From positions 24,415,189 through 24,479,188 of the forward strand of contig JAJEKV010000001.1 in the NCBI GenBank assembly GCA_021234155.1: 64,000 nt of DNA, read 5' to 3'. A program made the translations under genes and the position numbers. The DNA is from Isoetes taiwanensis. Taxonomy: Eukaryota > Streptophyta > Lycopodiopsida > Isoetales > Isoetaceae. Below, one piece after another: positions 2,132 to 63,645 of this stretch. The notes below the pieces were generated by a model. That model saw only the letters and a program-made list of their open reading frames with translations, did not search any database and was not told the DNA's origin. Each line of letters begins with the position of its first letter. Position 1 is the first letter of the stretch.

Positions 2132-3885
2132 CCAACTGTGCAATGATAAGTTAGTGAAAATTGCTATTGGAAAGATTTTAAGATTGTGTTCTTTCGGAAC
2201 AATAGCAGGATAGCAGGAAGAGTGAGCTGTCTTATGCTGCAGTCATTTGGTGATCAATCTCTTTTTTGTTGAAGGAAGAGAACTGGCTTATCATTGGAAG
2301 AAGTTGCAGATAAAACGTTAAGTTTATAGGTTGGCTTCACTTGATAAATATGATAGATTACAGGAGCAACCCTCCTGCATGACACTTGTAGTAGTAAAAT
2401 CCAAATAGGAGGCTATTCGGGAACGAGTCTCATGCCTGGGATCGAGAATGGGGATTGCGGGGACAAGAACAATCCAAGCGGTGCAAAATCTTGAAGATGT
2501 ATGAAGAAGAGATGATGAATGTACAGGGATCATAGAGTGAAGCAGCCTTAAATAGCAGCTTCCCTAATTGTTTGTAATGGCTGCTCTATCAATTTGTGTA
2601 CTGGTATCCATCTAAAAACTGGCATGGATCATGTAGAATGTGTATATTGCATGGACCGGCTCTATTGCATAACAGTCTCTTTTGATGTTTGTCACAGTCC
2701 ACTCTTTGTATTTGCAGGATCTGTGGTAAGGGCAGGAGGAGAAGCTTTGCCACTTTCTGGAATATCTGCATGGGGTTTTGTAGTCCAGACAAAATCAATG
2801 CTGTATACTTTATCTTCTTTATTCACGGGGCTTTAGCAGGTGAGAAACATTTGATTTATTCCTTACAAAAAGTTACTTTTTCATTAGCGGATCATTGAGC
2901 ATTTTCGACCTCAAAATACAGCTCTTGAATCAGGCCTTTCGCTGGAGGAGCTTTGTTACGTTTTGTATTTGCCGTGTTTCATTTTCCTTTTCACTTTGTG
3001 GTCATTGCCTTTGTTTCTTTCCCTTTTTCTGCAGGTTGGAGGTGTGTCAGTCGCCAGTCCAGAGCTTGCGAATTCAACAATTTCTGTCATGTATGTCTTT
3101 GTTTTTGTTGCTTGTTTCTTTCTAAAGGCAAGAGACTCTAATTGATTGAAACAATTAAGTTTATATAGTGAGCCAAGAACAAAAAAACACTTCTTGAATC
3201 CATGCTAAAAGCAGAGCTCTTAATAACCCATATGCAGAGTTATCATAACTGCAAAAAATTGGTATGGAACCATCCTAAAAGATAAATATGAGTAGGAGAT
3301 GAGAGAATGCAGACACAGCCATGACTGGCATGATATTTAAATTAGCTAATTCTAATGCATGGCTGTGATAAAGTCTGGGCTCTCTCATCTCCTTACAGGC
3401 ACAGATTGGTAGCTATCCCAATGTCTTCTCCTCTTACAGGGATGCTAAAGGAATCAAGACAACACTCTTCTACACCTGCAGCTGCCCTTATGATAGGTCC
3501 AAATGATGTAAAAATTGTCACAAACAGCAGACTCATTAATTGAAGAGCTAATTTTGTTTGCTTTTTGTTATGCTACTTTATTGCTCCAAAAAGTGTTTAT
3601 CTGCTTTTTTATATTTGTTGGGTTTCAGTTTTCATTGCAATTTGCAGGAGATTCACTTCTGATGAGCTTGTAAGTCCAACAGTTCTCTGACAGTACAAAT
3701 TGGCAATGAAATATTCTGTTACGCTCAGCAACCATACTGTTTAACAAGTCAGTTTCATGCACATCACCATAAGTAACTAAATCACCATAAGTAACGAAAC
3801 TTAATGCTTAATGTTGTTGAGTTTTGCACTTCTGCTCCATTTCCATTCTTATCTTTTGTACAAAGCATCTGATTCCTTATCCATT
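2132..3885. other. 3' flank of PPR gene with exon-like fragments
   Basis: No long ORF. The first few hundred bases are the likely 3' UTR of the PPR gene. Further on, short segments have good plant splice borders: a tttctgcag acceptor near 3034 followed by an open stretch to a gtatgt near 3090, an acceptor near 3398 followed by an open stretch to about 3515, and a tttgcag near 3647. They could be exons or decayed exons of an unidentified plus-strand gene. I recognise no domain in them. Confidence 0.35.
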
Positions 3886-4080
3886 ATGCTTCTGCCATAT
3901 AGGATTTTCCATAGAATGCATAGGACGAATGACACCTCCGTGCCCTTCACCTGGACACTTGCCCATCACAAGTGATCTGAGTCAGACGAAGGGCCTTTCC
4001 ATGGTGACTAAGTTGCCATGGAAAGGGAATTTCTCGTATTTATATGATAGGAGCATTGTATAGATTCGAGAAGTGTCACA
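3886..4080 (+). mobile_element. 3'-terminal LTR fragment of the histone-H3 LTR element family
   Basis: This stretch aligns almost continuously with the last ~190 bp of the LTRs ending at 28083 and 34129. Shared blocks include gaatgacacctccgtg, the ccatggtgac...gttgccatgg palindromic block, and the gggagcatngtatagattc terminus, ending in gtcaca at 4080. The 5' ~1.35 kb of the LTR is missing, and no primer-binding site follows, so the flank after 4080 is not the element's interior. It is a truncated solo or 3' LTR and shows that the family is multi-copy. It is more diverged than the two LTRs of the full element are from each other. Confidence 0.85.
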
Positions 4081-25879: not shown

Positions 25880-26515
25880 CCAAGTGCTCAAAAGAAATTG
25901 GTAACAGAGAAACATCGGATTGCAGAGATGGAGTACCCTGGGTGCTCAAAGGCAATTGATAACAGAGAAATAGCGGATTGCAAAGATGGAGACCCGCATA
26001 CAGCAGACGGAAGATAGCATCCGCTTGGCGCACTTCGAGAGACAGCACGAATCGCGTGGACTTCATGTCCACCACCATGGAAGCCATCACACATGACAAG
26101 CAACATGTTGAACAGGAGACTATGGCAACCATCTTCCACCTTTAATTAGAAGTTGAGAATACCACCACCATGATGCGAAGAGTCTAGGTCGCATTTGAAG
26201 AGAGCCAGTCACAACTGAGAGCCCTTCAGAGTAGAGTCGAGATACAAGAAGCGGCATCATCGGCAGTAAATCCTGTGCTGGACTCTCGCTTATGGAAACT
26301 GGAGCACAGTTCTGCTGCCAGAGATCAAGAGGTACAGGAATTGCGGGCAGCCATCACCCAACAAGACAAGGGCCTCCATGCAGAAGCTCATGAGTAACTG
26401 TAGCAGTGCATGCATGAATTGGCAAGGCAGCAACAATTCCAGCAGGGGCTGAGCTCGCGGCTTCAGGAAGGAGGGGCCACTGCACAGGCCAAGGTAGTCC
26501 CATACATTCAAAAAC
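25880..26515 (+). mobile_element. LINE ORF1 fragment (copy F) of the A/C/D family
   Basis: Aligns with 35090-35690 of copy C: the ccaccatggaagccatcacac..gacaagcaacatgttga block, gagagcccttcagagtagagtcgagatacaagaagc and gcagcaacaattccagcagg. Stops interrupt the frame. Near its start a ~58-bp segment (agtacccc..gagatgg) is tandemly duplicated at 25876-25993. The fragment is truncated at both ends and its 3' end abuts the LTR element at 26531. Confidence 0.78.
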
Positions 26516-26525
26516 CTACATAACG

Positions 26526-26530
26526 TCAGT
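26526..26530. repeat. Target-site duplication of the histone-H3 LTR element, left
   Basis: tcagt precedes the 5' LTR and tcagc follows the 3' LTR (34130-34134): 4 of 5 bases match, in the expected 5-bp size. Confidence 0.6.
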
Positions 26531-28083
26531 TGTGACGTTTCAGGTATCTATACGATATACGTATGCATACCATGGCACGTCACCAGTACATAGTAGGCCT
26601 AAGGGCCCAAGTGAGGGGTTCGCCTATAATCGACTTTATTAGCTATGCTAATAAAATCAAAGGATAATTATGGATTATAATGTTGTAATTAACCTAATTA
26701 AGCCATTATGGTCTAATTAACTAATTGTGACCCATGAGGGGGTGCCACCTGGCCCAAATCGATTGGCCAGGAGGGACTTACCATTTTGGGGCAAGGAATA
26801 GGGGTCCTACCCTCCAGTTCACCCCAAATTCGAATTTGGAGTGAAGGGGAGCAGCAGCCAGCAACTTACACTTGTTTTTGCCAACACTTGACCACCAGCC
26901 TCGAACTATGGATGCCTACTGTGACCATGGCTCTAGCCAAGACACTGGTTAGTCAATAGATAGCTTCTTTCTCGCTGACACTTCTTTGAGTAGATGGAAT
27001 GATTAAATTCTCTTTTGTAAGTTGTTCTGAACACTTGAATGGTATTTACATTAGTTCTTTCTGCTTCTTCCGTGTATTGGGAATTAAGGGAAGGCTAGAG
27101 ACCTAAAAGCCTCTTGGTATTAGAGATGTCTCTAGCTAGATCCCTTAATACCCAATAATTGCGGCCTGTGCACAAGAGCCAACCTGGCGGGGGATGCTAT
27201 GATGTGGTTCAGCACCAGACAACGAGTATGAGGGTGAATCGGGGGTGGGGTCTTGCCTAGCATGGCTACAGGACTCCTATAGTGTGCTAGGCTCATAGCC
27301 GGTCACTGTGTGTGGGCCAGGTATGGGTCTGACAGTCTCTGGGCTAGAGGGCGTGAGTCATAGATGGCCGTCCTGGGCTCGAATGGGTTGGTGAGCTGAC
27401 CTTTAGATTTAGGGGAGTAAGTCAGGTACGGATGCGGGGGTCGCTGATGCGGCACGTGTTCTCTACCTCACCCAGGGATCCGTCATACTCGGGGAGGAGA
27501 CGCCTCTCTGACCTGCCCCATCGGACCGGGGAGATATAACCCGGAGTAGTCCCGAAGGGTGATTCCTTGGGATTGCGTCTCCGGAGGGCTACAAGCACGT
27601 CATAGCATGATTCAGCCTATCTGCAAAGTGTACACAGGAGAGGCGGATGGAGTGGACAACCCTAGCCATTGTCTTATGCCAGCCAACGCCATGTTATACT
27701 TCCGTCTCTTGATATCTTGAGGCCCTGGCCGTCACTTGATCCCTTGGAGTCGGAGCCCGGGGTAGTGCCTTGTCATGGTGTTATTTCATGTTATTATGGA
27801 TGTATTATCTTGTCCGTGATGATGATGGATGGGCCACCCTTCGTCGTGGTATATTATTTTGCATGATGATTGTATGCTAACGTACATATATGCTTCCGCT
27901 GTATAGGATTTCCCATAGAGGACGTATGACGAATGACACCTCCGTGTTCCTCGCCCGGACACTTGGCCATCCTAAGTGGTCCGAGTATGACAGAGGGCCT
28001 TGCCATGGTGATGTAGTCGCCATGGGAGAGGAATTCCCATATTTATACGATGGGAGCATCATATAGATTCTGGGAGCATCGCA
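26531..28083 (+). repeat. 5' LTR
   Basis: Starts TGTGACG and ends ..GGGAGCATCGCA. The 3' copy ends CGTCACA, giving a perfect 7-bp terminal inverted repeat in the ancestral LTR. An ORF of about 65 codons at 27669-27866 is shared with the other LTR only because the LTRs are duplicates. Confidence 0.93.
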
Positions 28084-28084
28084 G

Positions 28085-28096
28085 TAGTATCAGAGC
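28085..28096 (+). promoter_or_regulatory. Primer-binding site, initiator-Met tRNA type
   Basis: tagtatcagagc, one base after the LTR, differs at one position from the plant tRNA-iMet-complementary TGGTATCAGAGC. It overlaps the start of the first ORF (ATG at 28097). Confidence 0.88.
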
Positions 28097-28753
28097 ATGG
28101 CCGACATGGCAGCAGATCATGAGGCTCGGGAACGGGCGGAAAGGGCCCAACAAGAGCAACAACAGAAGGAGCAGCAAGAGCAGCAACAACAGCAGCAGGC
28201 CAACACCGAGCAGGAAACCCCGCGTGAGCCCAATCTGGTGGACAAGCCAGCTATTAAGAGACGGAGGAAATCCACAGCTCATAAGTCTGGCAGCCAATAT
28301 AAGGAAAAGCTAAAGGTTGTCGGGAGCATAGAGAAGCACACAAGCTCCAGTCGTCGGCAGGAACGAGTGGACGCCGCACGGCCTCACCCAGCTTCCGGGG
28401 GCAAGACTCTGCCCAAGAAGCCTGCCCCGACTCCAAAAGCTGCCACCTCAAAGAAGCCCCATTGTTTCAAACTGGGCACCGTGGCTTTACGGGAAATCCG
28501 TAAATACCAGAAGACCATGGAGCTGCTACTGAGGAAGCTGCCCTTCCAGAGGTTGGTCAGGGAGATAGCCCAAGAGTTCAAAACCGACCTCCGCTTCTAG
28601 ACCTTCGCTATTTTGGCACTTCAGGAGGCTGCTGAAGCCTACCTAATTGCTCTTTTCAGTGACGCGAACCTTTGCGCTATCCATGCAAAGAGGGTCACGA
28701 TTATGACCAAGGACTTAGCTCTTGCCCGGAGAATCCAGGGAGATCATCTGTAG
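28097..28753 (+). pseudogene. Histone H3-like ORF in retrotransposon gag position, one internal TAG
   Basis: Open for 167 codons to a TAG at 28598, then in the same frame for 50 more codons to TAG at 28751. Residues 1-55 are a Glu/Gln-rich leader with a polyQ run not found in histones. Residues 56-118 are Lys/Arg/Ser/Pro-rich and tail-like, with [11 protein letters not shown] recalling the H3 tail around K9. From residue 119 (KKPH, H3 K36-H39) it is an unmistakable H3 core: [34 protein letters not shown], stop, [33 protein letters not shown] and [10 protein letters not shown] are plant-type. F is present at position 41 and L at position 90. The stop replaces Q85, a single C-to-T change. Core length is that of canonical H3, without the longer loop 1 of CENH3. 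There are no introns. It begins 13 bp after the LTR, where gag belongs. It could mark chromatin or package element RNA/DNA, but function is unknown. Confidence 0.92.
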
Positions 28754-28990
28754 TTGCCTTCGGGCATCGCCATTGTAGCAATTTTGTAAATATTAATATT
28801 AATCCCAGTTTTGTCTATTGTGTCCCTGTTACAAAATAATTATTCATAATAAAATAATCAGATTTTAATATTTATTTAAAATGAAAATGCTGACGTCAGG
28901 ATAAAAGTAGAAAGGGTACTTAAAAGTTCTTAGGGTTTCATTTCTCATCCCTTACCATTTTTGTTCATCCTCCTCCCTCATTCCTTCCAG
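28754..28990 (+). promoter_or_regulatory. AT-rich spacer with TGACGTCA and a splice-acceptor-like tract
   Basis: Between the two interior ORFs. It contains the palindrome TGACGTCA (near 28891), which includes the ACGTCA hexamer known from plant histone promoters and bZIP sites. It ends in a long pyrimidine tract, ttcatcctcctccctcattccttccag, with AG at 28989-28990, five bases before the next ATG. This suggests either an internal promoter or spliced expression of the second ORF. Both are inference. Confidence 0.45.
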
Positions 28991-28995
28991 CGCCA

Positions 28996-29505
28996 ATGGC
29001 CGCCACCAACCTGCTTCAATGGTATCAGGATGGGGAACACTGGAACCCTCAAATCCTCTTTGATCTCCTACAGCCTTTTCTACTCCAACACATCGACCTC
29101 ATCTCTAACATACAGAGCCACCCTGACTATGCTGGGTTTTTGGAGTTCTACGCCAAGGAGATGCTTCCTCTTTGCATCCCTTTGGGAGAACCCCCACAGC
29201 TTTACATTGAGCGAGCTGTGGTGCGGGAGATGCTTGGAGGAGACACTCACGCCTACGACGTGCTCAAGGGCAAACTCCGGTGGGGCTGTAACCCACCCAT
29301 CGTCATGCATGAGGGTCAGCAGTTCCTCGAAGTGGCCTTTGCTCTGGCCATCCTCATGGATCAGTATGTGGAGGATGAGACCCTGCCAGCAGAGAAGGGC
29401 AAGGTCCCTGACTCGTCGGATGAGGAAGAGGATGAGTATATTGGGATAGAAGACTTCGTCCGGTGGAAGCAGTTGGCCGAAGAAATGCCACCACACCGGG
29501 ACTAG
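28996..29505 (+). CDS. Unrecognised retrotransposon-borne ORF with acidic C-terminus
   Basis: An intact 169-residue frame with a good start context (gccaATGGCC). The first ~115 residues look globular and helical (NLLQWYQDGEHWNPQILFDL, FLEFYAKEMLPLCIPLGEPP, then a hydrophobic stretch after QQFLEVAF). The segment DSSDEEEDEY at about 140-150 is strongly acidic. I do not recognise a family: it has no zinc knuckle of gag, no protease D[TS]G motif and no known histone chaperone fold signature. It lies between the H3-like ORF and pol in the same orientation, while pol next door is broken. It may be a captured host gene or an element-specific gene. An acidic partner for a basic histone-like protein is an attractive but unproven idea. 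Confidence 0.6.
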   Translation: MAATNLLQWYQDGEHWNPQILFDLLQPFLLQHIDLISNIQSHPDYAGFLEFYAKEMLPLCIPLGEPPQLYIERAVVREMLGGDTHAYDVLKGKLRWGCNPPIVMHEGQQFLEVAFALAILMDQYVEDETLPAEKGKVPDSSDEEEDEYIGIEDFVRWKQLAEEMPPHRD

Positions 29506-29519
29506 GGAAGACGCTTAAC

Positions 29520-30520
29520 CGGTTTGGATGTCCTTCCGGTTATATATCGCCAAGGTTAGATGTTCCGCTTTCCGGACCCGTTATGGGCATTACGAGTTCA
29601 CAGTGATGCCATTTGGCCTGACCAATGCTCCGGCCACTTTCATGAGGCTCATGAATGATGTCTTCCGCGAGTACCTTGACGATTTTGTCATCATATTCTT
29701 TGATGACATCCTTATCTACAGTAAGACCTTAGAGGATCATGAACAACATCTTCGGTTGGCATTACAGAAATTGAGTGGCCACCAATTATATGCCAAATTC
29801 TCTAAGTGTCGTTTTGCCACCACCAAGGTGGATTACCTAGGCCATATTGTGTTCGCAAAGGGAATAGCCACCGACCCCGCTAAAATTGAAGCAGTCAAGG
29901 AATGGCCAATTCCAACCAATGTGTCTAAGGTCTGCAGCTTTCTTGGCTTGGCCGGGTATTACCGTAAATTTGTCAAAGACTTTGTCAAGCTCGCCGCACC
30001 TTTAACTGACCTAACCAAGCATGATAAGGTTAGGGATTGGATGGCACATTGGAAAGACAAGGTACAGTCCGGATTTCAAGCACTAAAGGATGCCTTGACA
30101 ACAGCTCCTGTTCTTACAATGCCAGATCCTCAAAAAGATAAGTGGGTTGCTACAGATGCCAGTAGAATCGCCACCGGTGGAGTCTTAATGCAGGCAGGTT
30201 ATCGCTTATGACTCCTGAAAGATGAATGATACAGAACAGCGATACCCCACTCATGACCAAGAATTGCTCGCCGTTGTGCGTGCCTTACGCATTTGGAGGC
30301 ACTATTTACTTGAAGGCGATTCTAGTTGGATACTGATCATCAAAGTCTCCAATACATCTTTACGCAACCCCACCTTAATTTGAGACAAAGACGGTGGATG
30401 GAATTCCTGGAGGAATATGAATTCCTGGAGGAATATGATTTTGAGGTCATTTATAAACCGGGCAAGCATAATGTTGTTGCCGACGCCCTTTCCAGTCGTC
30501 ACTCGAATGCATTGTAATGC
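29520..30520 (+). pseudogene. Pol: reverse transcriptase (N-terminally truncated) and RNase H
   Basis: The sequence enters reverse transcriptase just before [20 protein letters not shown]; all blocks upstream of this are missing. The catalytic box is FFDD ([13 protein letters not shown]), normal for gypsy. Then [12 protein letters not shown], the [15 protein letters not shown] connection and an RNase H start at ATDAS. The frame stops at 30211 after [11 protein letters not shown]. RNase H resumes in other frames ([25 protein letters not shown]). An 18-bp in-frame tandem duplication at about 30401-30437 repeats the EFLEEY codons just before the RNase H end. Broken and incomplete. Confidence 0.9.
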
Positions 30521-30623: not shown

Positions 30624-31610
30624 ATGGATAAGGAGAGAGAGACTTTCCGCCATTATAAGAGGCAAGCTGAACTCCTTTATTACAAGGACAAGTTATATAT
30701 TCCCGAGACGTCTGGTGTTCGTAAGCTTATTCTCCACGACACACATAACAGTTCGATAGCGGGGCACGCAGGATTCGTGAAGACGTATTTCAAAATTCGC
30801 TCCAGCTATTTCTGGCCAGGCATGAAGAAGCATATTGCCAGCTACATTAAGCAATGCCAGACCTGTCAACAAATAAAGGCAGAACAGTTGCGTATTCCAG
30901 GAGAATTGCAACCCCTCGATGTACCCAATGTTAAATGGGAAGTTATTACCATGGATTTTATCGTGGGGCTTCCGCGCACCTTAAGAGGGTTTGATGCCTT
31001 AATGGTTGTGGTCGACAAACTTTCGAAGATGGCACATTTCCTGCCATGTCGTACCACAGACACTGCATTAGATACTGCACGAGGGAGATCTTTCGTCTGC
31101 ATGGGATGCCCCGTACGATTATATCAGATCGGGACCCTAAGTTTGTTAGTGCATTTTGGAAGGATTTCTTCAGCACTATTCAAACTAAGCTTGCCATGAG
31201 CATAGCTTATCATCCGGCGACAGATGGTCAAATAGAGCGTACCAATCGCATAATTGAGGATATGCTACGTAACTATGTCTGGAATAAACAGTCTCAATGG
31301 GCAAACTACATTCATTTGGTGGAGTTTGCTTACAATAGTACGAGACAGGAGTCCTCAAGAATGTCTCCTTTCATGATAAATTATAGTTATCAGTGCGTGA
31401 CAGCATACACGTGGCATAACCCAGCATCAAAGGTGGAGGTTTCGCAGCAATTGCTTACAGATATGCAAGCACTAGTCGAGGAAGTTCGAGCATACTTGGT
31501 AGCCGCAAGAGCTCGGCAAAAGAGTCTGGCAGATCGACACCGTACTCCCCGGGAGTTTCAGGTCGGTGAGTCCATCTGGCTAAAGATTAAGGTAGCAAGC
31601 CAAACTTAAG
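30624..31610 (+). pseudogene. Pol: integrase
   Basis: The HHCC zinc domain is readable: H at HDTHNSSIAGHAGF and C..C at YIKQCQTCQQ. The catalytic core has D in TMDFIVGLP, D in ISDRDPKFVSAFW and E in GQIERTNR. The core is split by a frameshift around 31080, where one frame reads on as RGRSFVCMG and the correct one is entered at CTREIFRLHG. The C-terminal part continues to EFQVGESIWLK and stops at 31609. Integrase would insert the cDNA. Confidence 0.9.
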
Positions 31611-31659: not shown

Positions 31660-32048
31660 TATCCAAACGGATAGGATCTCAGACCTACCGGTTGGATCTA
31701 CCCGCACATTTAAAGATCCATAAAGTTTTCCATGTAAGTCTTCTCAAGACGCATCATCCGGATCCAGAAGAGATCCTTGACACACCAACACTTCTGGAGA
31801 TGATTGAGGATCAGTTGGAGATTGTGCCAGAAGCTCTCCTTGATCTTGCCTATAAGCAAACCCGTCGAACTCAAATCCTGCAATACTTGGTCAAGTGGAA
31901 ACACTTACCCACAGAAGACGCAACATGGGTTCTTAAAGCAGATTTGGATAAGACTTACCCAGACTTTATGAAGGAATGCCAGGGCCGAACCATTCACGAT
32001 GCAATCATCTCCAACCCAGATGGTAAGCATAGTTGTCTCTTAGTGTGA
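31660..32048 (+). pseudogene. Pol: integrase C-terminus and chromodomain
   Basis: In the third frame, LPAHLKIHKVFHVSLLKTHHPDP is the conserved integrase tail. It is followed by a chromodomain, ILQYLVKWKHLPTEDATWV, with the aromatic cage positions Y, W and W in place. It ends with a stop at 32046. Chromodomains of chromoviruses bind modified histone H3 tails, notable because the same element carries an H3-like ORF. Confidence 0.88.
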
Positions 32049-32577
32049 CAGGGGTCATATGAGCGGGATCCGGCAGGGATCATTTTAGGGATTGGGTTAC
32101 ATGCATCTTAGATGGGGAATCGAGTATATAGGCATTCATGATAGGACGCATTCGTCTACGGCTACTATGGGAATACTGCCACTCCTTACGCCGAGATGAC
32201 ATGGAAGCCTTAGACATGATAGGACCTTTGCATTCATATTTTTTTCTTCATTTAAGGGGGTGGTCCCTTCAACCACACTACTTAACTTATTTCTTAAACA
32301 CTAATCTATTCACTTCTGCAGGCCAGTAAGATACTCCTAAGCTGCAGAAGAATCGAGGCCTTGCTTCAGAGGCCAAACTTGTGTTTTTGAGATAAATTTG
32401 TGTTTCCAATGTACTTTTGTACGTAATTTCCTATTGTTTTGTTGAAAACAGGACTTCTTGTCCTGTTACCTCCATATGTAACACTTTGATGTTTTCAATA
32501 AATCAACGTTATCTTCACCATAGTTACCCTCCACTAACTCTAACACCGAGGACAACATTAATCCAAGGGGGGGAGAA
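32049..32577 (+). other. Untranslated 3' interior and polypurine tract
   Basis: Non-coding DNA between pol and the 3' LTR. The polypurine tract aaggggggga(gaa) at 32565-32577 lies directly before the LTR and primes plus-strand synthesis in this family. Confidence 0.85.
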
Positions 32578-34129
32578 TGTGACGTTCCGGGTATCTATAC
32601 GGTATATGTATGCATACCATGACACGTCACCAGTACATAGTAGGCCTAAGGGCCCAAGTGAGGGGTTCGCCTATAATGGATTTTATTAGCTATGCTAATA
32701 AAACCAAAGGATAATTATGGATTATAATGGTATAATTAACCTAATTAAGCCATTATGGTCTAATTAACTAATTGTGACCCATGAGGGACTGCCACCTGGC
32801 CCAAATCGATTGGCCAGGAGGGACTTACCATTTTGGGGCAAGGAATAGGGGTCCTACCCTCCAGTTCACCCCAATTCAAATTTGGAGTGAAGGGGAGCAG
32901 CAGCCAGCAGCTTACACTTGTTTTTGCCAACACTTGACCACCAGCCTCGAACTATGGATGCCTACCATGACCATGGCTCTAGCCAAGACACTGGTTAGTC
33001 AATAGATAGCTTCTTTCTCGCTGACACTTCTTTGAGTAGATGGAATGATTAAATTCTCTTTTGTAAGTTGTTCTGAACACTTGAATGGTATTTACATTAG
33101 TTCTTTCTGCTTCTTCCGTGTATTGGGAATTAAGGGAAGGCTAGAGACCTAAAAGCCTCTTGGTATTAGAGATGTCTCTAGCTAGATCCCTTAATACCCA
33201 ATAATTGCGGCCTGTGCACAAGAGCCAACCTGGCTGGGGATGCTATGATGTGGTTCAGCACCAGACAACGAGTATGAGGGTGAATCGGGGGTGGGGTCTT
33301 GCCTAGCGCGGCTACATGACTCTTATAGTGTGCTAGGCTCATAGCCGGTCACTGTATGTGGGCCGGGTATGGGTCTGACACTCTCTTGGCTGGAGGGCGT
33401 GAGTCATAGATGGCTGTCCTTGGCTCGAACGGGTTGGTGAGCTGACCTTTAGATTTAGGGGAGTAAGTCGGGTACGGATGCGGGGGTTGCTGATGCGGCA
33501 CGTGTTCTCTAGCACACCCACGGATCCGTCATACTCGGGGAGGAGACGCCTCTCTGACCTGCCCCATCGGACCGGGGAGATGTAACCCGGAGTAGTCCCG
33601 ATGGGTGATTCCTTGGGATTGCGTCTCCGGAGGGCTACAAGCACGTCATAGCATGATTCAGCCTATCTGCAGAGTGTGCACAGGAGGGGCGGATGGAATG
33701 GACAACCCTAACCATTGTTTTATGCCAGCCAACGCCATGTTATACTTCCGTCTGTTGATATCTTGAGGCCCTGGCCGTCACTTGATCCCTTGGAGTCGGA
33801 GCCCGGGGTAGTGCCTTGTCATGGTGTTATTTCATGTTATTATGGATGTATTATCTTGTCCGTGATGATGATGGATGGGCCACCCTTCGTGGTGGTATAT
33901 TATTTTGCATGATGATTGTATGCTAACGTACATATATGCTTCCGCTGTATAGGATTTCCCATAGAGGATGTGGGACGAATGACACCTCCGTGTTCCTCGC
34001 CCGGACACTTGGCCATCCCAAGTGGTCCGAGTATGATGGAGGGCCTTGCCATGGTGATGTAGTCGCCATGGGAGGGGAATTCCCGTATTTATACGATGGG
34101 AGCATCGTATAGATTCTGGGAGCGTCACA
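32578..34129 (+). repeat. 3' LTR
   Basis: TGTGACG...CGTCACA, aligned end to end with 26531-28083. Differences are mostly C/T and G/A transitions, clustered in the first ~50 bp and around 33300-33530. Confidence 0.93.
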
Positions 34130-34400
34130 TCAGCTATTGTGGGAGCGTCACATCAGCGTCACATCATTCTGGGAGCGTCCATTGTTCCATTTTTCAGCAC
34201 TATATACTTTTCTTCATATTTATTGATCTGCAGCTCTGTTTTGGGAGCAATGCATATCATTGGAATTCTTGTTCTGTGATGATTATAAAGACATATGGTT
34301 TGTACACATTTGCTTAAGGTCTGAGAAGAGAAAACAACAGGTTTTTGCAACCCAATTTTAAGACGGAATTCAGAGGGTGTGATACCATCCAATCACCTTG
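34130..34400. other. Flank with echoes of the LTR terminus
   Basis: GGGAGCGTC, the LTR end motif, recurs at 34141 and 34171, just outside the 3' LTR, within tgggagcgtcacatcag-type copies. The rest has no recognisable gene. Confidence 0.5.
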
Positions 34401-34565: not shown

Positions 34566-36187
34566 TTGCTTCTTGCACTTGGAAGCCTGCGGCCCGCCGA
34601 ACGTGGAAGCTTTCGGATGGGCGCCCCAGAAATGACAGAGGTTGTAAAGGCCATCAAAGTGATTGAGGCTTTCGCACAAGCCGTCCGTAGGGTGACACGC
34701 TATTCATGGCAACTCGGTGTTAGAAGAGCCGGGGACGAGCCCCCGCGCCCCTTCATCCAACCCCACGATATGCATGTGGATGGTGCCGACACGCAGATCC
34801 CCTCTACCTAGCTTGCACACATGGCAGCAAAACTTCTACTGGGAGAGTACATAGATGCCATCCCCAATCGCAGGCCAGATGACACTGGCAAAATTGATAG
34901 GTGCACACTGAAAAGAGAAGCGCGGGCAAAGTCTCGTGCAACAAGCATAGCTCGGCAGACATATGACAGATACTCTAGCCCAGCGACAAGCCGTATCCGT
35001 GCTTCACCACCACCAAACCAGGTAGTTGAGGAGCACTGGAAACAGGTTCAAGCAATGGCAGAGGGCAACAAAGCTCGAATTGCTTGCTTGGCAGAGGAAA
35101 TGCAGGCCTCCGCACCCAAATTGCTCAAGAGGCAAACGGGCTCTTGAAAAATAGTGTGTTTCAAAGATGGAGACCCGATACAAAGACACGGAAGATGGCC
35201 TTCGCCTAGTGCACTCGGGAAGCGCGTAAGGATAAGAAGAGTCTTGCTGACATGCAGGCCCGCATGGATTTCTTGTACACCGCCATGGAAACCATGACAC
35301 AGGACAAGCAACGTGTTGAGTAGGAGACAATGGTAACCATCTCCGCTTCGATCGAGGTCGAGGAGGCTGCCACCGCGGATGCTTGAAAAGTCCAGTCGCT
35401 TTTGAAGAGAGCTACCACAATTGAGAGCCCTTCAAAGTAGGGTCGAGACACAAGAAGTGGCCTCATCCGTAATGAACCCTATGGCGGACTCTCGCTTGTA
35501 AACCGGAGCATAGCCCGCGAGCCCAAGATCGGAAGGTGTAGGAGCTGAGGGCAGCCATTCTTGAACAAGGCAAGGGCCTCAATGCAGACGCCATGAGCAA
35601 TTACAATGGTGCATGGAATTGACAAGGCAAAGCAACAATTTCAGCAGGAGCTAAGCTCTGGCCGGGAAGGAGAGACCACTATACCGCCTGCCACCAGTAG
35701 CCCCACCGCCCAAGAATCGCGCAGGCGCCGGCCGGGGCCGTCTACTCATCGCACCCCAAGCCGCTCCATGCCACCCCCGTCCCAACGTAGACCACAGCCT
35801 ATGCCCCGCCGACCGCCCCAAACAACTCTGTTGTGTGTGTCGCGTGATTGACCCAATAGTCGAGAGCTCCGTGAGCCGAGGCGGAGAAGCCACAATGTGG
35901 TGGTACGTGGCCCCACGTAAGAGGCGGGGAGGACCTCATTAACCGCTCCAAATGTTGATTCTGCTTGAATGACATTCCCCATGCCGGTAAACATTATTAG
36001 GGCGAGACGCCATGGCGTCCAGCACCCAGACCGCCCACGTGTCATCATGTTCACAGTACGAGATGCGCAAGTGAAAGCAGCCATCCTGCACCAGGGTAGG
36101 CAACTAAAGGGAACTGCTCTGTATGTTGACCGAGACCCGACCCCCGCCCAAGAAGAAGACCCGCAGCACGAAGTTGGCCAAAGTTAA
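34566..36187 (+). pseudogene. LINE copy C ORF1
   Basis: An RNA-binding-type ORF1, broken into frames. It starts around ATG 34566/34620, with MTEVVKAIKVIEAFAQAV. Then come MAAKLLLGEYIDAIPNRRPD (34821 on), a coiled-coil-like Glu/Ala/Gln/Met-rich middle (35040-35650), a Pro/Arg-rich hinge (SRRRRPGPSTHR, 35711 on) and a C-terminal domain at 35979-36187 (VIMFTVRDAQVKAAILHQGR). The last resembles the compact RNA-binding fold of LINE ORF1 proteins. At least three stops or frameshifts. It probably coats element RNA in the ribonucleoprotein. Confidence 0.7.
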
Positions 36188-36436: not shown

Positions 36437-37270
36437 ATGAATTGTGCCTCCTGCATGGTCTCCCCGGAATTGTCGGGGCTTCCCATGGCGTAAGGGAGAT
36501 AGTCTCAACTTCGGTTGCCTTGAGACATGGATTTCATCTTCCTCATCAAAACATGGGAGCATGCAAGACAGGATACCCGACTTGCTAGGATACCAGCACT
36601 ATTCAATCTTCAATGATTGCACAAAAAAGCGGGGGCATGGGGGTGTTGCCTGCTACTACCGAACAACCTTGGCGGATCAATCTCCTTGTTCAAGGCAGGA
36701 CAAGCACAACCCGCACTGTGGGTGCATGTGCAAAACCTGCGATGAGAGACCTCTCTTTGTTGTACCGCTACTTTCCACATGCAGAAAGCAACTTCTATCA
36801 CACCCACTCGGATGTGGATAGGCTGGACCCCTATGTCGATCTATATGATGACATACAGCAACATAAGCAGTTGGGCAGTGTCATACTCCTTGGAGACTTC
36901 AATGCGCGCACCGGGGTAGAACAACCCATGAGATTTGATCCCTTGACTGATGATATATTGCAGTTGCGTCGTGCAGAAGGAGCTTGGCCACGGACATCAG
37001 ATGACAATTAGGTCACGCGCTATAGTCGACAGTTGCTTTTGCTTTGCAGTATCTTTGACCTGGTAATCTGCAATAGACTGGCACAGTGGCCTTCCACCCG
37101 CAAGAGCACTTGTAGACAGGAAAACCAGGGGGGCGGATCTAGTGTGGTGGACTATGTGCTGGTGCCTGAGCAGGATATGCATGTCATCAAGCACTTTCAG
37201 GTGGGAACAGCTAATAGGGATGAAGAGATCGACTCAGACCACTTACCACTTTACTTGAAGTTGGCTTGGC
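36437..37270 (+). pseudogene. LINE copy C ORF2, AP-like endonuclease
   Basis: Opens with NCRGLPWRKGDSLNFGCLETW-type sequence. It then has IFNDCTKKRGHGGVACYYRT, DPYVDLYDDI, the catalytic LLGDFNARTG (Asp/Asn pair), and the terminal DSDHLPLYLKL (Asp-His pair of the APE fold). A TAG at 37009 and one earlier frameshift break it. The family nicks target DNA to prime reverse transcription. Confidence 0.88.
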
Positions 37271-38666
37271 AGGTTGTGCCAACCCCCGGTGCAACAACTC
37301 CTCACATGCCTCAGCTGCAATTGGATTATGAACATGCAGGGGCTTATGCCCAGATGCTTATAGATGATCTGGCAGAAATTTTGCAATATCCTACACTAGA
37401 GCAACAGACAGGCCAGCTGACTGATGTGCTTAGGACTGCGGCAGAGAGATGCTTTGGGATAAGCCGCCCGCGAAGGACCTCCAGGAACACAACCTTCCCA
37501 TGTAATCAATGGTTTGATGCAGAGTGCAAGGAACACAAACGTTGGCTCCGCCAAGTCACAGACCCTGCTTTATGCCCACATGCAGTCAGACAGCACCGCA
37601 TCTTCCTTAAAGCTAAGAAAGCCAGGTACATTGCAGCGCATCAAAGGGAAATGTTTTACCTCCTGGAACATCACCCCAGGACCTTCTGGCGAAGGGTTCT
37701 TAGAAAGCCAATACAGTCCACAGGGAATATCACTCCCGAGTAGTGGAGGCAATACTTGCAACAGCTATACGACCCTCAGGGTGCACATGCAGCATTACCC
37801 TTGCAAGAAGGCCCAGTGCTAGAAATCACAGATTCGGACGTGGAACAAGGCTTACAACGTCTTGCCAATGGGAAAGCCCCAGACTTGGATGGTATGCAGG
37901 CAGAATTGCTTAAGTGGGCAGGGCCGTCCATAATACCAGTGCTGACCGCCTTGTTCAACAAGGCATTATAGGAAGGCTTCCCGCTGCAGTGGACCAATAG
38001 CAAAGTTGTTCCCTCTATAAGGCAGGTGACCCACACTGCCCAGCCAATTACCGAACAATCATGGTCAGTTCGGTGTTTGCAAAACTGTTTGCTGGGATTC
38101 TCGAGCAGCAGTTGATGGGCTGGGCAGAGGCAGCAGAGGTGCGGGCCCTCACCCAGGCAAGATTCAGACCCCGGCACTCAACCATTGACCACATCTTCAC
38201 GTTGCGAACTCTGATTGAAGACAACAGGAACCACCATCAGGATCTATATTGTTGCTTTGTGGATTTTGCAAAGGCGTTTGACACTGTGCCTCGGGAAAAA
38301 CTATGGGCAAGACTGCAACAGCTGGGGGTTCCTGTAGATTTGCAGAATGCAGCGTACAGGCTATATGAAAGATGCTCGGGTCGGTTGCAGCAGACAAGCC
38401 AACCATTTGATAGTAGTATCGGGGTTCGTCGGGGATGACCTCTCTCCCCAACATTGTTTGGGCTTTACATTGATCAATTGGAGAGCTGGCTTGCTGATAA
38501 TGGGGGCGATGGAGCTCACCTTCTCTATCAGATCATCAGACAGTTAATATATGCTGATGATGTGGACCTCCTAGCTTACACACCAGCAGACATGCAACGA
38601 CATCTCGATGCCCTCAGGGGGGTTTCAGTCGACCCCTTGCACGCACATGCCATATGCTCTATATAA
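37271..38666 (+). pseudogene. LINE copy C ORF2, reverse transcriptase
   Basis: After a linker (RPRRTSRNTTFPCNQWFDAECK and HHPRTFWRRVLRKP) come the reverse transcriptase blocks: GKAPDLDGMQAELLKWAGPS, NYRTIMVSSVFAKLFAGILE, FRPRHSTIDHIFTLRTLIE, CFVDFAKAFDTVPREKLWARL, GVRRG with a stop where G.RQGCPLSP is expected, LFGLYIDQLE and YADDVDLLAY. Both catalytic Asp sites are intact locally, but stops at 37741, 37969 and 38437 and frame changes interrupt the gene. Confidence 0.9.
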
Positions 38667-38717
38667 AGGGGTGAAGCCCCGGGGGATGCCCTGGACACAT
38701 TCTGCCAAGCGACTGAT

Positions 38718-39733
38718 ATGCGCGTCAACCTGGCCAAGACTAAGGTGGTTTTCATATCATCTTCACGTCAGGTGAGGGTCCCCTCCTTCAGTTACCGAGG
38801 CCAGAATGTGGAAGTTGCATCCACATACAAATATTTGGGAGTGGAGTTTCTTTCTACTATGCACGGGGACACATCCATACGGCTAAAAGTGACGGCAGGC
38901 TGGAAGGCACTATATGCAATACAAAACAATAGTCATAGAGCAGAGTTGTATGATTGGGCCCATCAGTCACACCTGTTCAAGGTCTTAGTGGAGCCTGTCC
39001 TTTTATATGGGGTGGAAGTATGGGGCCCAGTAGTATCACTTGCTACTTGGAATGACTTGGAGCAGGTCCAAAAAGCCTTCTTAGTACGAGCACTAGGGGT
39101 GAAGTCCACAGTCCCATATCAAATTCTACTGCAGGAGACAGGATTCTTGCCTCTTCAGAGGGCGGCCCTTGATCGCCACATTGTCTATTTTCAGAAGGTG
39201 GTCAATATAGACGATGCTCGTCTCCCTAAACTAGCTTATATCATGGCAATGGGGCCGCAACGCATCAAGGCCTGCTGGAGGGAAAAGAGAGCTCAATGGT
39301 TGGCTAGATGGAATGTGCAGGAGCACAGGTGCATACATGTGCAAACAGAGGCAGATTGCCATAGCTTGAGGCAATATCTTGACGCTTGCTTCCTCAGCAA
39401 GCTTTGGAATGCTAATGCCCTTGAACATGTCAAGACAGCACACTACCAGCGCCACATTCCACATTGGAACGAGGCCCGCAATGCTACCTGCGTATCCACT
39501 TGCCCATGAAACATCATCTTCGAATTGAAACGGGCAGATGGATTGGTGAGCCACGTCAGGACAGGCTCTGTCAATGCTGCCAAATGGAAGTCATTGAGGA
39601 TGAATCTCATACCCTTCAAAGTTGCCCAGCATATGCTCAAATTCGGACGCGCTATGCTGAGTTGGTCAGGTCTGGTCAGCCATGTGACATTGAGCACAGC
39701 ATCCGTACGGATGCTGGGATCATACCTTCATGA
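38718..39733 (+). pseudogene. LINE copy C ORF2, C-terminal domain with Cys/His motif
   Basis: Begins MRVNLAKTKVVFIS and YKYLGVEF (the thumb after YADD), then VEPVLLYGVEVWGP, a long basic region and, after a frameshift near 39510, RLCQCCQMEVIEDESHTLQSCP. That is a C-x2-C...H...C zinc-binding motif common at the end of LINE ORF2. Stop at 39733. Confidence 0.85.
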
Positions 39734-48169: not shown

Positions 48170-49496
48170 ATGGATCCAAGCACTCGATACAACCTTCTAC
48201 AAATATGCCAAATATTGCAGTCCTTCATAATGTTGGAGATGTTAAGGCCCAGTGAGGCACCACCATCCAAGAGATACATGTATGCATGTGTGCAAGTGCT
48301 CGCGTTGGTACAGAAGATGAATTTTATGACAAGGCAGCAAAGGAGTTGTGGGTGTACAAGCACATAGAAGGATACTACGAAAACATCTTGTCACATAGCC
48401 ACACGGATAGAATGTTCCGTCAGAAGATGAGGGTGTCACGGGCAACTTTTGAATGGTTGTGCATTGTGTTACATCCAGTGCTAGTGGGGAAGAACACACA
48501 CCTAAGATTGGCTTTGCAAGTCCCAAAAAACGTGCTATTGCATTGACTCGCCTTGCAAGTGGTTCAACACTTCCTCCTGTGGTAGCAGAGTTATATGGAG
48601 TCAGCGTCATTACAACTTATAGATATGTTATAGAATTTTGTCAGGCAGTTAAAATAAAGAGGGAAGAATTGCATTGTGGTCTTATTTGGCCTTCCATGAG
48701 TACGTGTAAGAAATATGCAACTGGCTTTGAGGCCAAGCATGGCATTCCCAATGTGATTGGGGCAGTGGTTGGCAGTCACATTCCCATAAAAAGCTCCTAT
48801 AGAGCATGCTCCTGATTATTACAATAGGAAAGGCTTTCACTCCATTCTTCTACAAATCATTGTTGATTCTAGGTGTCTGATATGGGATTACGATGTTGAT
48901 TGGGCGGGAAGTATGCACGATTGGGCTCTATTTCGAAGAACATCGGCTTGCACCATATTTACTCTGGTCAAATGGGCAATTATTGCATATTAGGTGATGC
49001 AGATTACAATGCTAGGAATTGGCTGTTGACACCATATTTGAATGTAGGCCCAGAATTTACCCCAATACAGAATCATTGGAATTTCATTCAATCTAACACT
49101 AGGATGTCCGTGGAGAGGGCATTTGGTATACTAAAAGCTCGTTTTCGTATATTATTGAAGAAAATGGAGATGAGTTTTAAGCATGTTCCTCTAGTTGTAT
49201 CAGCGTGTCTAGTTCTGCATAACTTATGTATTATTCACAATGATGCTTTTGATGAAATTTGGATCAGGGAAGCCCAAAAGGAGTCAAAGGAATGTAGGGA
49301 TAATGCTGCTAGAGATGCTTTACGAGAATTAGGTATGGCTTGCGATGGTGTTGCAAATGCTTCAGATCCTGATATTCAAGAGGAAGTGGTTACACTCAAT
49401 TATCAATTGGAAGATACTGCAAGAAGGGACACATTAGCTAGAGCTTTGTATGAAGTAAACAAATGTGATGGAATTGCAAACATGGAGGAGTTTTGA
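48170..49496 (+). pseudogene. PIF/Harbinger transposase (DDE_Tnp_4 / HARBI1 type), broken
   Basis: Starts MDPSTRYNLLQICQILQSFI. Then, over four frames: YYENILSHSHTDRMFRQKMRVS (the MxxxTF-type region RATFEWL), KRAIALTRLASGSTLPPVVAELYGVS (HTH), and IPNVIGAVVGSHIPIK, where family members have GAIDGTHI, so the first catalytic Asp is Val. The second Asp site is DWAGSMHDW. LGDADYNARNWLLTPY follows. The catalytic Glu is in RMSVERAFGILKARF. Frameshifts near 48515, 48815 and 48950 plus the lost Asp make it inactive. The last 198 codons are an intact frame ending at 49496. Confidence 0.88.
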
Positions 49497-61859: not shown

Positions 61860-62570
61860 GTAGCATTGCAGGCCCTGCTATAACACGGGGTTTATGTGGC
61901 ATTGGTAATATGCTGTCTTGACATGTTCAAGAATGTTGGCATCCCATAGCTTGTTGAGGAAGCATGTATCAAGGTACTGTCCGAGGCTGTGGCAGTCTGC
62001 CTTTGTTTGCACTCTGATGCAGATGTGCTCCTGCACATTCCATTTGGATAACCATTGAACTCTCTTTTCCCGCCAACAGACTTTTAGGCGCTGAGGCCCC
62101 ATTGCCACGGTGTAAGCGAGGTTAGGGAGGTGAGTATAATCCATACTAACCACCTTCTAGAAGTAGATGATGTGTCTGTCAAGGGTCCCCCTCTGAAGAG
62201 GCAAAAAGCCTGTCTCCTGCTACAGTATTTGGTAAGGAACTGTGGACTTTACCTCCAGGGCCCATGCCAAGAAAGCTTTCTGCACCTGCTCTAAGTCATC
62301 CTAAGTGACGAGGGAAATTACTGGGCCCCAGACCTCGACCCTATACAAAAGCACAGGTTCCACTAGTACCTTGAATAGGTGCGACAGGTGGGCCCAATCA
62401 TACAGCTCCCCATAGCTATTGTTCTGCGTTGCATAGAGTAGTTTCCAACCTGTTGCATCTTGTAACCGGATGAGATTGTCCCAGTTGATGGCAAATGAAA
62501 ACTCCACCCCCAAATATTTGTAAGTGGGCACCACTTCGACATTTTGACCACGATAAGTGAGGGTTGGGGC
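61860..62570 (-). pseudogene. LINE copy D ORF2, C-terminal domain
   Basis: Frames match copy C 38820-39440: VPTYKYLGVEFSFAINWDNL, YDWAHLSHLFKVLVEPVLLY, VEVWGPVISLVT, then THLPNLAYTVAMGPQRLKVC and LDTCFLNKLWDANILEHVK. The 3' Cys/His motif is not seen and may be lost. Confidence 0.85.
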
Positions 62571-62699
62571 CCTTGTTTGACGTTATGGACAATATGAGGA
62601 CCACCTTGGTCTAACTTGACACTATGTCAGTCGCCTGACAAAATGTGTCCAGGGCATCGACATGGCGTTGCATGTCTGCTGCAGTGTGAGCTAGGAGAT

Positions 62700-63645
62700 C
62701 CACATCATCAGCATAGATCAGTTGCCTAGTGATCTGGTGTAGGCTTCATTGCTTCCATTATCAGTAAGCCATCTCTCCAACTGATCAATGTACATGCCAA
62801 ATAGCATAGGGGAGAGAGGGCATCCCTGACGGACCCAAATGCTGCTCTCGAATGGTTGGCCCGCTGGTTGCAGCCGGCCTGAGCATGTCTCATATAACCT
62901 GTACACAACGTTCTGCAGTTCCGCAAGGACCTCCAGCTATTGGAATCTTGTCCACAGCTTTCCCCGAGGCACAACGTCAAAAGCCTTGGCGAAGTCTACG
63001 AAGCAGCAATGCACTTCTTGTCGACGGTTGCTGCTGTCCTCAACCAAAGCCCGCAGCATGAAGATATGATCAATGGTTGAGTGCCTTGGCCTAAATCCTG
63101 CCTGCATGAGTGCCTGTATTTTTGCTGCCTCTGCCCATCTTGTCAGTACTGCTCGAGGATTCTGACGAGGATCTTTGCAAACACTGAGCTGATCATGATG
63201 GTCCGACAATTGGTCAGGTAGTGTGGGTCTCCTGCTTTGTAGATTGAGACAATCCTACTAGTGGTCGGCTCTGCTTTGTAGATTGAGACAATCCTACTAG
63301 TGGTCGGCTACGGGAGAAAACCTTCCCGCAATGCCCTGTTGAACATGGCGATTAGTACTGGTGCCATGGATAGTCTGCGCACTTGAGTAACTCTGCCTGC
63401 ATGCCATTGAGTTCTGGCACTTTTCCATTGGCTAGATGCTGCAGCCCCTGCGTTACCTCCGCCTCTCTGATTTCCAGCACCGGGCCTTGCTGCAAGGGTA
63501 ATGCTGCCTGTGCACCTTCAGGATTGTAGAGCTGCTGGATGTACTGCCCCCACTGCTCGGAGGTGATGTTTCTTGCGGGCGGCACTGGCCTCTTGAGCAC
63601 TCTTCGCCAGAAGGTCCTGGGATGACGTTCCAGGAGAAAGAACAT
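62700..63645 (-). pseudogene. LINE copy D ORF2, linker and reverse transcriptase
   Basis: From 5': the linker RHPRTFWRRVLKRPVPPARN, then EVTQGLQHLANGKVPELNGM (first RT block, D to N at the usual APDLDG), QAGFRPRHSTIDHIFMLRAL, CCFVDFAKAFDVVPRGKLWT and SSIWVRQGCPLSPMLFGMYI. The YADD region near 62700-62720 is readable in a shifted frame (atctatgctgatgatgtgga). Frame breaks near 63360, 63180 and 62940. Confidence 0.87.

What the first reader, a model, noticed from the sequence alone, without database searches (positions are those of the whole stretch)
28097..28753. A histone H3 gene occupies the gag position of an LTR retrotransposon
The ORF that starts 13 bp after the 5' LTR ends in a complete plant-type histone H3 core (helix N to the C-terminal LARRI), fused to a new N-terminal extension with a polyQ run and a Lys/Ser/Pro-rich tail. 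It sits between LTR plus primer-binding site and pol, so it belongs to the element. Known LTR elements encode gag here. I know of chromodomains that read H3 in chromoviruses, but not of chromoviruses that encode H3. Possible roles are nucleoprotein packaging in place of gag, altered chromatin at the donor or target site, or attraction of its own chromodomain integrase.
Basis: partly seen in the sequence, partly recalled or inferred. Interest (0 to 1): 0.95.

Follow-up and report, generated by a model that had tools for sequence, protein, structure and literature searches.

The report
Retrotransposon family carrying histone H3
A large family of jumping genes in a quillwort plant carries its own strongly conserved version of histone H3, the protein that packages DNA, fused to a new front part, which suggests that a genomic parasite makes its own chromatin component.

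Summary
The H3 gene is real, belongs to the element and is not a one-off. The window copy is a broken deletion derivative: an in-frame TAG at H3 Q85, and loss of the leader, most of the ORF1 N-domain, gag, protease and half of RT. Fuller relatives in the same 1.66 Gb genome (almost certainly Isoetes taiwanensis, from assembly size) show the layout: LTR, PBS, leader, ORF1 (~420 aa: new N-domain, basic linker, C-terminal H3 core), ORF2, an acidic ORF3, then an ordinary gag-PR-RT-RH-IN-chromodomain. So H3 is an extra ORF upstream of gag, not a replacement for gag. Of other copies found with the N-domain alone, 27 of 27 checked carry H3 downstream. The H3 core has the lowest dN/dS of the parts compared (about 0.05), shares E77 and L90 with host H3, groups as one clade, and has fixed changes at the alpha2 chaperone site (host SAVL/TAVL/HAVL, element FAIL) and a replaced tail. 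Best reading: a captured host H3 turned into an element-encoded nucleosomal variant that acts on chromatin, by anti-silencing or self-marking. That role is inferred. Nine searches of an open-access library showed me no report of a histone-encoding retrotransposon.

The parts
26526..26530 (.). target-site duplication, left copy (TCAGT; right copy TCAGC at 34130-34134, one mismatch)
   Evidence: sequence
26531..28083 (+). 5' LTR, TG..CA, 1553 bp; K2P distance to the 3' LTR 0.0365
28085..28096 (+). primer-binding site TAGTATCAGAGC, one mismatch to the plant initiator-Met type TGGTATCAGAGC (motif recalled)
   Evidence: several fuller copies read GTGGTATCAGAG at this place
28097..28753 (+). remnant of ORF1: 5'-truncated (most of the N-domain deleted), polyQ/basic linker plus H3 core; in-frame TAG at 28598-28600 (H3 Q85)
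28454..28750 (+). histone H3 core, residues 37-135 in H3 numbering, interrupted by the TAG
28964..28990 (+). pyrimidine-rich tract ending in CAG, splice-acceptor-like, just before the ORF2 ATG; CAG kept in 11 of 13 aligned copies
   Evidence: function inferred
28996..29505 (+). remnant of ORF2 (first 169 residues; 466 aa in L021; no Pfam or protein-database relative found)
29528..30211 (+). RT remnant (C-terminal half of RVT_1) and start of RNase H; gag, protease and N-terminal RT missing
30624..31609 (+). integrase, broken into two frames (H2C2 zinc-binding part by Pfam; second frame by similarity to the fuller copies)
31692..32048 (+). integrase C-terminus with chromodomain of group II type (W kept; the two other aromatic-cage positions not aromatic)
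   Evidence: cage positions judged against HP1 from memory
32565..32577 (+). polypurine tract AAGGGGGGGAGAA
32578..34129 (+). 3' LTR

Best explanation
The window holds a dead derivative of a multicopy chromovirus (Ty3/gypsy) family whose fuller members encode, upstream of ordinary gag-pol, a ~420-aa protein made of a new N-terminal domain, a basic linker and a histone H3 core captured from the host lineage. Shown: the gene is part of the element and is under strong purifying selection; a single origin is the best fit. Inferred: the protein pairs with host H4, enters nucleosomes on the element's DNA and/or host chromatin, and works as a chromatin effector. It replaces the tail that carries K4, K9 and K27 with a foreign extension, so that marked nucleosomes resist repressive methylation or are read by the element's own proteins. 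The fixed change of the alpha2 chaperone-recognition site suggests deposition by a different route from host H3.
For: Multicopy and diverse: 150 of 150 scored matches for the H3 ORF at 63-100% and for the N-domain at 77-100% identity (capped lists). H3 lies downstream of the N-domain in 7 of 7 further top copies (an eighth is the query's own place) and in 20 of 20 rank-sampled copies. A window-LTR relative lies upstream of H3 in 15 of 20 ten-kb loci, and on the same strand downstream lie ORF2 in 19, gag capsid in 12, RT in 10 and IN in 8 of 20. dN/dS at dS 0.5-0.8: H3 core 0.047 (66 pairs), N-domain 0.157 (44), linker 0.238 (74) in 29 open copies; ORF2 0.130 (14), gag 0.124 (6), RT-IN 0.090 (3). 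14 disjoint nearest pairs: H3 pN/pS 0.146, Fisher 7e-57. In 29 copies R69, R83, F84, C110, H113, T118 and D123 are invariant, R116, K122 and L126 kept in 28, R129 in 27. E77 in 28 of 29 and L90 in 29 of 29, as in 10 of 10 host H3 genes fetched; 119 of 120 listed H3 proteins of other organisms showed the motif, all with D77. N-domain and H3 distances co-vary, r=0.91 over 377 pairs.
Against: No expression, protein or chromatin data. No homologue of the N-domain or ORF2 to suggest a partner. Structure models were too poor to use (mean pLDDT 45 and 36). The dN/dS set was chosen for open frames, and the gag and RT comparisons rest on few pairs. Support for the element H3 as one clade is moderate (86/68). 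In the rank sample only 6 of 20 copies match all 100 H3 residues in one open frame, and 9 show a stop or split frame. 11 of 15 aligned stops are of CG/CHG type, which suggests that the family is methylated and that any anti-silencing effect is incomplete.
Confidence: 0.5

Rival explanations
1. Integration targeting: nucleosomes carrying the element's H3 are the docking site for its own group II chromodomain integrase, giving self-directed insertion.
For: The element has a group II chromodomain, and the partner of that type is stated to be unknown (PMC6317226 passage). H3 and chromodomain are encoded in one element.
Against: No evidence that the chromodomain binds the ORF1 linker or H3. Matches lie on many contigs; clustering was not tested.
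Confidence: 0.2
2. Decoy: ORF1-H3 stays soluble and titrates host H4, chaperones or silencing factors without entering nucleosomes.
For: Altered alpha2 site (FAIL in 28 of 29) and changes at 102, 105, 107, 124 and 125 that are fixed or nearly so in 29 copies.
Against: DNA-contact and four-helix-bundle residues (roles recalled) are conserved too; a pure decoy would not need all of these.
Confidence: 0.15
3. Nucleoprotein role inside the particle or pre-integration complex: the H3 domain coats the cDNA alongside gag.
For: Basic linker and kept DNA-contact residues; histones package DNA in some DNA viruses (PMC9145170 passages).
Against: A normal gag with a CCHC knuckle is present in fuller copies. 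The core keeps its H4-pairing surfaces, which points to use with host H4.
Confidence: 0.1
4. Passive gene capture with no function (transduplication).
For: Plant elements do capture gene pieces (recalled); the window copy and many sampled copies are broken.
Against: H3 core dN/dS about 0.05 and presence of H3 in 27 of 27 further copies checked.
Confidence: 0.03

Closest known systems
Plant chromoviruses (Ty3/gypsy with chromodomain integrase)
   Same: LTRs, Met-type PBS, gag with CCHC, PR, RT, RH, IN, group II chromodomain
   Different: Extra coding regions (ORF1-H3, ORF2, ORF3) upstream of gag; I saw no such layout in the passages read of PMC6317226 and PMC3350952 or the section and passages read of PMC9289625
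Plant LTR elements with extra ORFs (eORF-5'F class, PMC6317226; orchid Ty3/gypsy with a captured 2-ODD RNA demethylase, PMC9289625)
   Same: Extra sense ORF in the 5' part (eORF-5'F); a captured host domain kept while the family diversified (orchid case)
   Different: The captured domain is a core histone. In the one section read in full 121 angiosperm genomes gave 15 extra domains; none of those named there is a histone (its figure and supplement were not seen)
Single viral histones (bracovirus H4; singlet H3 of several large DNA viruses and a xenomavirus; review PMC9145170, passages)
   Same: Host-derived histone fold mostly at 73-89% identity, some with N-terminal extensions; altered alpha2 site (TAIL in two of them, FAIL here)
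   Different: Those are DNA-virus or polydnavirus genes, and several keep most tail sites; here it is an LTR retrotransposon and the tail is replaced. 'Retrotransposon' and 'retrovirus' have 0 occurrences in that review's main text
Host H3.1/H3.3 and CENH3
   Same: 71-86% identity to the typed H3.1 over the matched stretch in the 135 rows below the 15 canonical genes
   Different: N-tail not recognisable (shuffle test negative); not CENH3: loop 1 has the canonical TDLRF length, whereas the recalled CENH3 core is longer there and branches apart

Membership tests
Chromovirus (Ty3/gypsy LTR retrotransposon) | Paired LTRs with TG..CA, TSD, PBS, PPT | tested here: met
   (window copy; TSD and PBS each with one mismatch)
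Chromovirus (Ty3/gypsy LTR retrotransposon) | gag, then PR-RT-RH-IN in this order | tested here: met
   L025: Ty3_capsid/Retrotrans_gag, RVP_2, RVT_1, RNase H, integrase; same order in loci reaching that far; the window copy itself lacks gag
Chromovirus (Ty3/gypsy LTR retrotransposon) | chromodomain at the integrase C-terminus | tested here: met
   window: Pfam Chromo 2.4e-9, PDB Chd1 chromodomain 2.8e-6
Named chromovirus clade (Reina, CRM, Galadriel, Tekay, Tcn1) | RT tree placement | not tested
   no reference RT set was at hand
LTR element with eORF-5'F | sense ORF of at least 250 codons in the 5' part (upstream of gag here) | tested here: met
   ORF1 413-430 codons in 8 of 10 copies with the conserved start; the other two (459, 462) run on past the usual stop
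Histone H3 | histone fold with H3-specific core residues | tested here: met
   L025: Pfam E 1.7e-40, PDB H3.3 E 7e-52; residue table of 29 copies
Canonical replicative or replacement H3 | conserved N-tail with K4, K9, K27 | tested here: not met
   tail not recognisable above shuffled composition: 67-836 of 1000 shuffles reach the score in nine copies tested
CENH3 | longer loop 1 and divergent core | tested here: not met
   canonical loop 1; groups with H3, not with the recalled CENH3
Single viral histone (functional analogue) | incorporation into host nucleosomes | not testable with these tools
   needs biochemistry or ChIP

The most novel reading that the evidence does not exclude
The family runs its own private chromatin: it deposits an element-encoded H3 with a foreign tail on its own new copies, so that they escape K9/K27-based silencing, and its group II chromodomain integrase and/or ORF2-ORF3 products recognise that mark. 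That would be a self-made epigenetic label written and read by a retrotransposon.
Probability: 0.2. Interest if true: 0.97.

Novelty: new variant of a known kind. Interest (0 to 1): 0.88.

Why it matters
Histones have been found in DNA viruses, but the searches made here showed no report of one in a retroelement. A retrotransposon family that keeps a nucleosomal H3 under at least as much constraint as its own polymerase suggests that a genomic parasite can intervene in chromatin by supplying the substrate of silencing, not only by reading or evading marks. It makes two open questions testable: how plant elements resist H3K9/CHG silencing, and what group II chromodomains bind. It also gives a natural H3 with a replaced tail and a changed chaperone site for histone-deposition studies.

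Tried and rejected
Rejected: H3 in place of gag (gag capsid downstream in 12 of 20 loci). One-off capture. CENH3 origin. Derivation of the linker from the canonical H3 tail: an ARKS-like motif looked tempting, but shuffled linkers score as high. Repeated captures: N-domain and H3 distances co-vary, and S86T, S87F, V89I, G102A, T107A, I124L, Q125A and a change at E105 are fixed or nearly so in 29 copies.

Led nowhere: the protein-database search with whole ORF1 listed host-type H3s (best 120 of 5324 shown). The N-domain (1527 candidates) and ORF2 (7998 candidates, capped) had no relative at E 0.001. The ORF2 profile against PDB gave nothing below E 0.19. AlphaFold models of ORF1 and ORF2 had mean pLDDT 45 and 36, so no fold search was run. 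Copy number could not be counted: the pattern search did not complete. Splice donors to match the acceptor-like motifs were looked for by eye; none was convincing. My one search counts of ORF3, gag and RT ignored strand and position; one search recounted them on the same strand downstream of H3 (ORF3 14, gag capsid 12, CCHC-PR 10, RT 10, IN 8 of 20). Paper searches were seen as listings with abstract starts, six phrases for a histone-encoding retroelement, found 0 papers. Papers opened: PMC8566536, PMC9145170, PMC6317226, PMC10541799 and PMC3350952 as passages; PMC9289625 as passages and section 12. The library holds open-licence PMC papers only.

Full report
Host. The window lies in a 1,658,258,908-base genome of 1110 sequences. 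The published Isoetes taiwanensis assembly is 1658.30 Mb in 204 scaffolds plus 909 contigs (PMC8566536, passages). I take the host to be this lycophyte; that is an inference from size.

The window copy. LTRs at 26531-28083 and 32578-34129 are 96.5% identical (K2P 0.0365), with TG..CA ends, TCAGT/TCAGC flanks, a Met-type PBS and a polypurine tract. Between them lie an H3-bearing ORF, an unknown ORF, the C-terminal half of RT, integrase in pieces and a chromodomain. The H3 frame has an in-frame TAG at H3 Q85. The copy is dead and internally deleted.

The family. Searching the host genome with this ORF gave 150 matches among 150 scored candidates (14,605 first-look candidates) at 63-100% identity. 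The N-domain of a fuller copy (L025 residues 1-225) also gave 150 of 150, at 77-100% identity, from 3,606 candidates. Both lists are capped, so the copy number is not known. I read 20 loci of 10 kb, all listed without a stop. The layout is: LTR; PBS; leader of about 0.6-0.8 kb; ORF1; spacer of about 190-275 bp; ORF2; an acidic ORF3; gag; PR; RT; RH; IN; chromodomain. A relative of the window LTR lies upstream of H3 in 15 of 20. On the same strand downstream of H3 lie ORF2 in 19, ORF3 in 14, the gag capsid in 12, CCHC-protease in 10, RT in 10 and IN in 8 of 20; one locus has less than 2 kb of room and two have insertions before ORF2. Pfam confirms gag in L025 (Ty3_capsid 1.3e-16, Retrotrans_gag 7e-16) with weaker matches to zinc knuckle and protease, then RT, RNase H and integrase. 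So H3 does not stand in for gag. It is the C-terminal domain of an additional ORF.

H3 is a steady part of the family. To avoid choosing by H3, I took copies found with the N-domain alone. Of the eight best, one is the query's own place; the other seven all carry the H3 core downstream. So do 20 of 20 copies sampled down the ranking. Of these 20, 6 match all 100 core residues in one open frame, 9 show a stop or a split frame, and 5 match in part. All of these are N-domains at least 77% identical to L025; more distant copies were not sampled in this way.

Selection. Across 29 open copies, mean dN over mean dS for pairs at dS 0.5-0.8 is 0.047 in the H3 core (66 pairs), 0.157 in the N-domain (44) and 0.238 in the linker (74); for the 3-4 closest pairs (dS below 0.1) the ratios are 0.33-0.58. 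That pattern fits selection along element lineages and relaxation after insertion. For dS 0.5-0.8 in the 20 loci, ORF2 gives 0.130 (14 pairs), gag 0.124 (6) and RT-IN 0.090 (3). The H3 core is lowest in each bin from dS 0.1 upward, but in the widest bin (dS above 0.8) RT-IN is close (0.059 over 9 pairs against 0.052), and below dS 0.1 ORF2 is lower (0.25 over 2 pairs). In 14 disjoint nearest pairs, which avoid pseudo-replication, H3 pN/pS is 0.146 (82 nonsynonymous changes in 3140 sites, 184 synonymous in 1027; Fisher 7e-57), N-domain 0.245 and linker 0.304. Copies were chosen for open frames, which excludes stops but should not create a ratio this low. Many N-domain pairs are saturated (144 of 403 without a computable dS).

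Origin. The host has at least 15 full-length H3 genes at 96-98% identity to the typed query; the other 135 rows are at 71-86%. Ten host genes fetched all have E77 and L90. The element H3 has E77 in 28 of 29 copies and L90 in 29 of 29. Of 120 listed H3-bearing proteins of other organisms, 119 showed the motif, all with D77 (a biased sample of long gene models). The element H3 forms one group in the tree (one change, support 86/68, 81% of bootstrap trees). Distances in the N-domain and in H3 correlate at r=0.91 (377 pairs). A single capture from a host-lineage H3 fits best.

What changed (29 copies). S86T in 28, S87F, V89I, G102A and I124L in 29, T107A and Q125A in 27, E105 replaced in 29 (G 19, S 9, D 1); the last residue is never A, and R134 is kept in only 7. 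Residues 87-90 read FAIL in 28, where the host has SAVL, TAVL or HAVL. The review PMC9145170 (passages) names this alpha2 site as the chaperone recognition site that sets the deposition pathway, and reports TAIL in two viral H3s. K36 is R in 22. The canonical tail cannot be recognised: in nine copies tested, 67-836 of 1000 shuffled linkers reach the observed score. Residues that I recall as nucleosome-critical are kept: R69, R83, F84, C110, H113, T118 and D123 in 29, K64, R116, K122 and L126 in 28, R129 in 27, R63 in 26.

Expression layout. ORF1 is the first long ORF after the leader. A pyrimidine-rich tract ending in CAG stands just before the ORF2 ATG in 11 of 13 copies. In seven copies aligned further on, a CAG precedes the ORF3 part in seven and a TAG|ACG motif precedes gag in six (by eye). 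This suggests that ORF1-H3 is read from unspliced RNA and the downstream genes from spliced RNAs; no donor site was established, so this is inference.

Chromodomain. The window's chromodomain keeps the W of the chromo box, while the first and third cage positions are not aromatic (comparison with HP1 recalled; group II definition from PMC3350952, passages; alignment to Chd1). PMC6317226 (passages) states that the partner of this type is not known.

Decay. Of 15 stops that could be aligned in 42 copies (matches under 70% identity left out, the window's own stop not among them), 7 are Q to TAG and 4 are R to TGA, as expected from C-to-T changes at CHG and CG sites. With 16 of 24 Q codons in L025 being CAG, 7 of 7 is only suggestive. 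It hints that the family is methylated, which limits a strong anti-silencing claim.

Mechanism. I commit to a nucleosomal H3 variant with a foreign extension, deposited with host H4, that alters chromatin at the element or the host (about 0.5). Shown: membership, constraint, kept core surfaces, altered alpha2 site, unrecognisable tail; best fit: one capture. Inferred: incorporation, location and effect. Rivals are integration targeting (0.2), decoy (0.15), particle nucleoprotein (0.1) and no function (0.03).

Novelty. Extra ORFs and captured host domains are known in plant elements (PMC6317226, PMC9289625), and histones are known in DNA viruses (PMC9145170). Nine paper searches (listings only) of an open-licence library showed no histone-encoding retroelement. 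I therefore call it a new variant of a known kind, at the far end of that class.

Noticed in passing
28753-28996, and the same spacer in 12 related loci: The ORF1-ORF2 spacer holds a conserved palindromic ctgacgtcag block and a splice-acceptor-like tract; similar acceptor-like motifs precede ORF3 and gag.
   Followed up: partly
L021:4989-5513, L018:4980-5504: ORF3 carries a long Asp/Glu/Tyr-rich acidic stretch before a part that looks helical; acidic stretches are common in histone chaperones (recalled), so a chaperone for the element H3 is a possibility.
   Followed up: no
L043, L069, L077, L080 (H3 Q55) and window, L075, L080 (H3 Q85): The same Q codons turned to TAG in several copies, as expected from methylated CHG sites.
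   Followed up: partly
3882-4080: A diverged LTR fragment of the same family elsewhere in the window (79-81% to the LTR ends).
   Followed up: no
26053-26481 and 35261-35680: Diverged copies (76%) of one repeat flank the element on both sides.
   Followed up: no
36613-39509 and 61894-63243: LINE-like remnants (LLGDFNART endonuclease-like motif, recalled) with an inverted 75-77% copy at the window end.
   Followed up: no
8-2131: Long ORF that looks like a pentatricopeptide-repeat protein gene, 707 aa (by eye).
   Followed up: no
48900-49496: ORF resembling a Harbinger-type transposase C-terminus (by eye).
   Followed up: no
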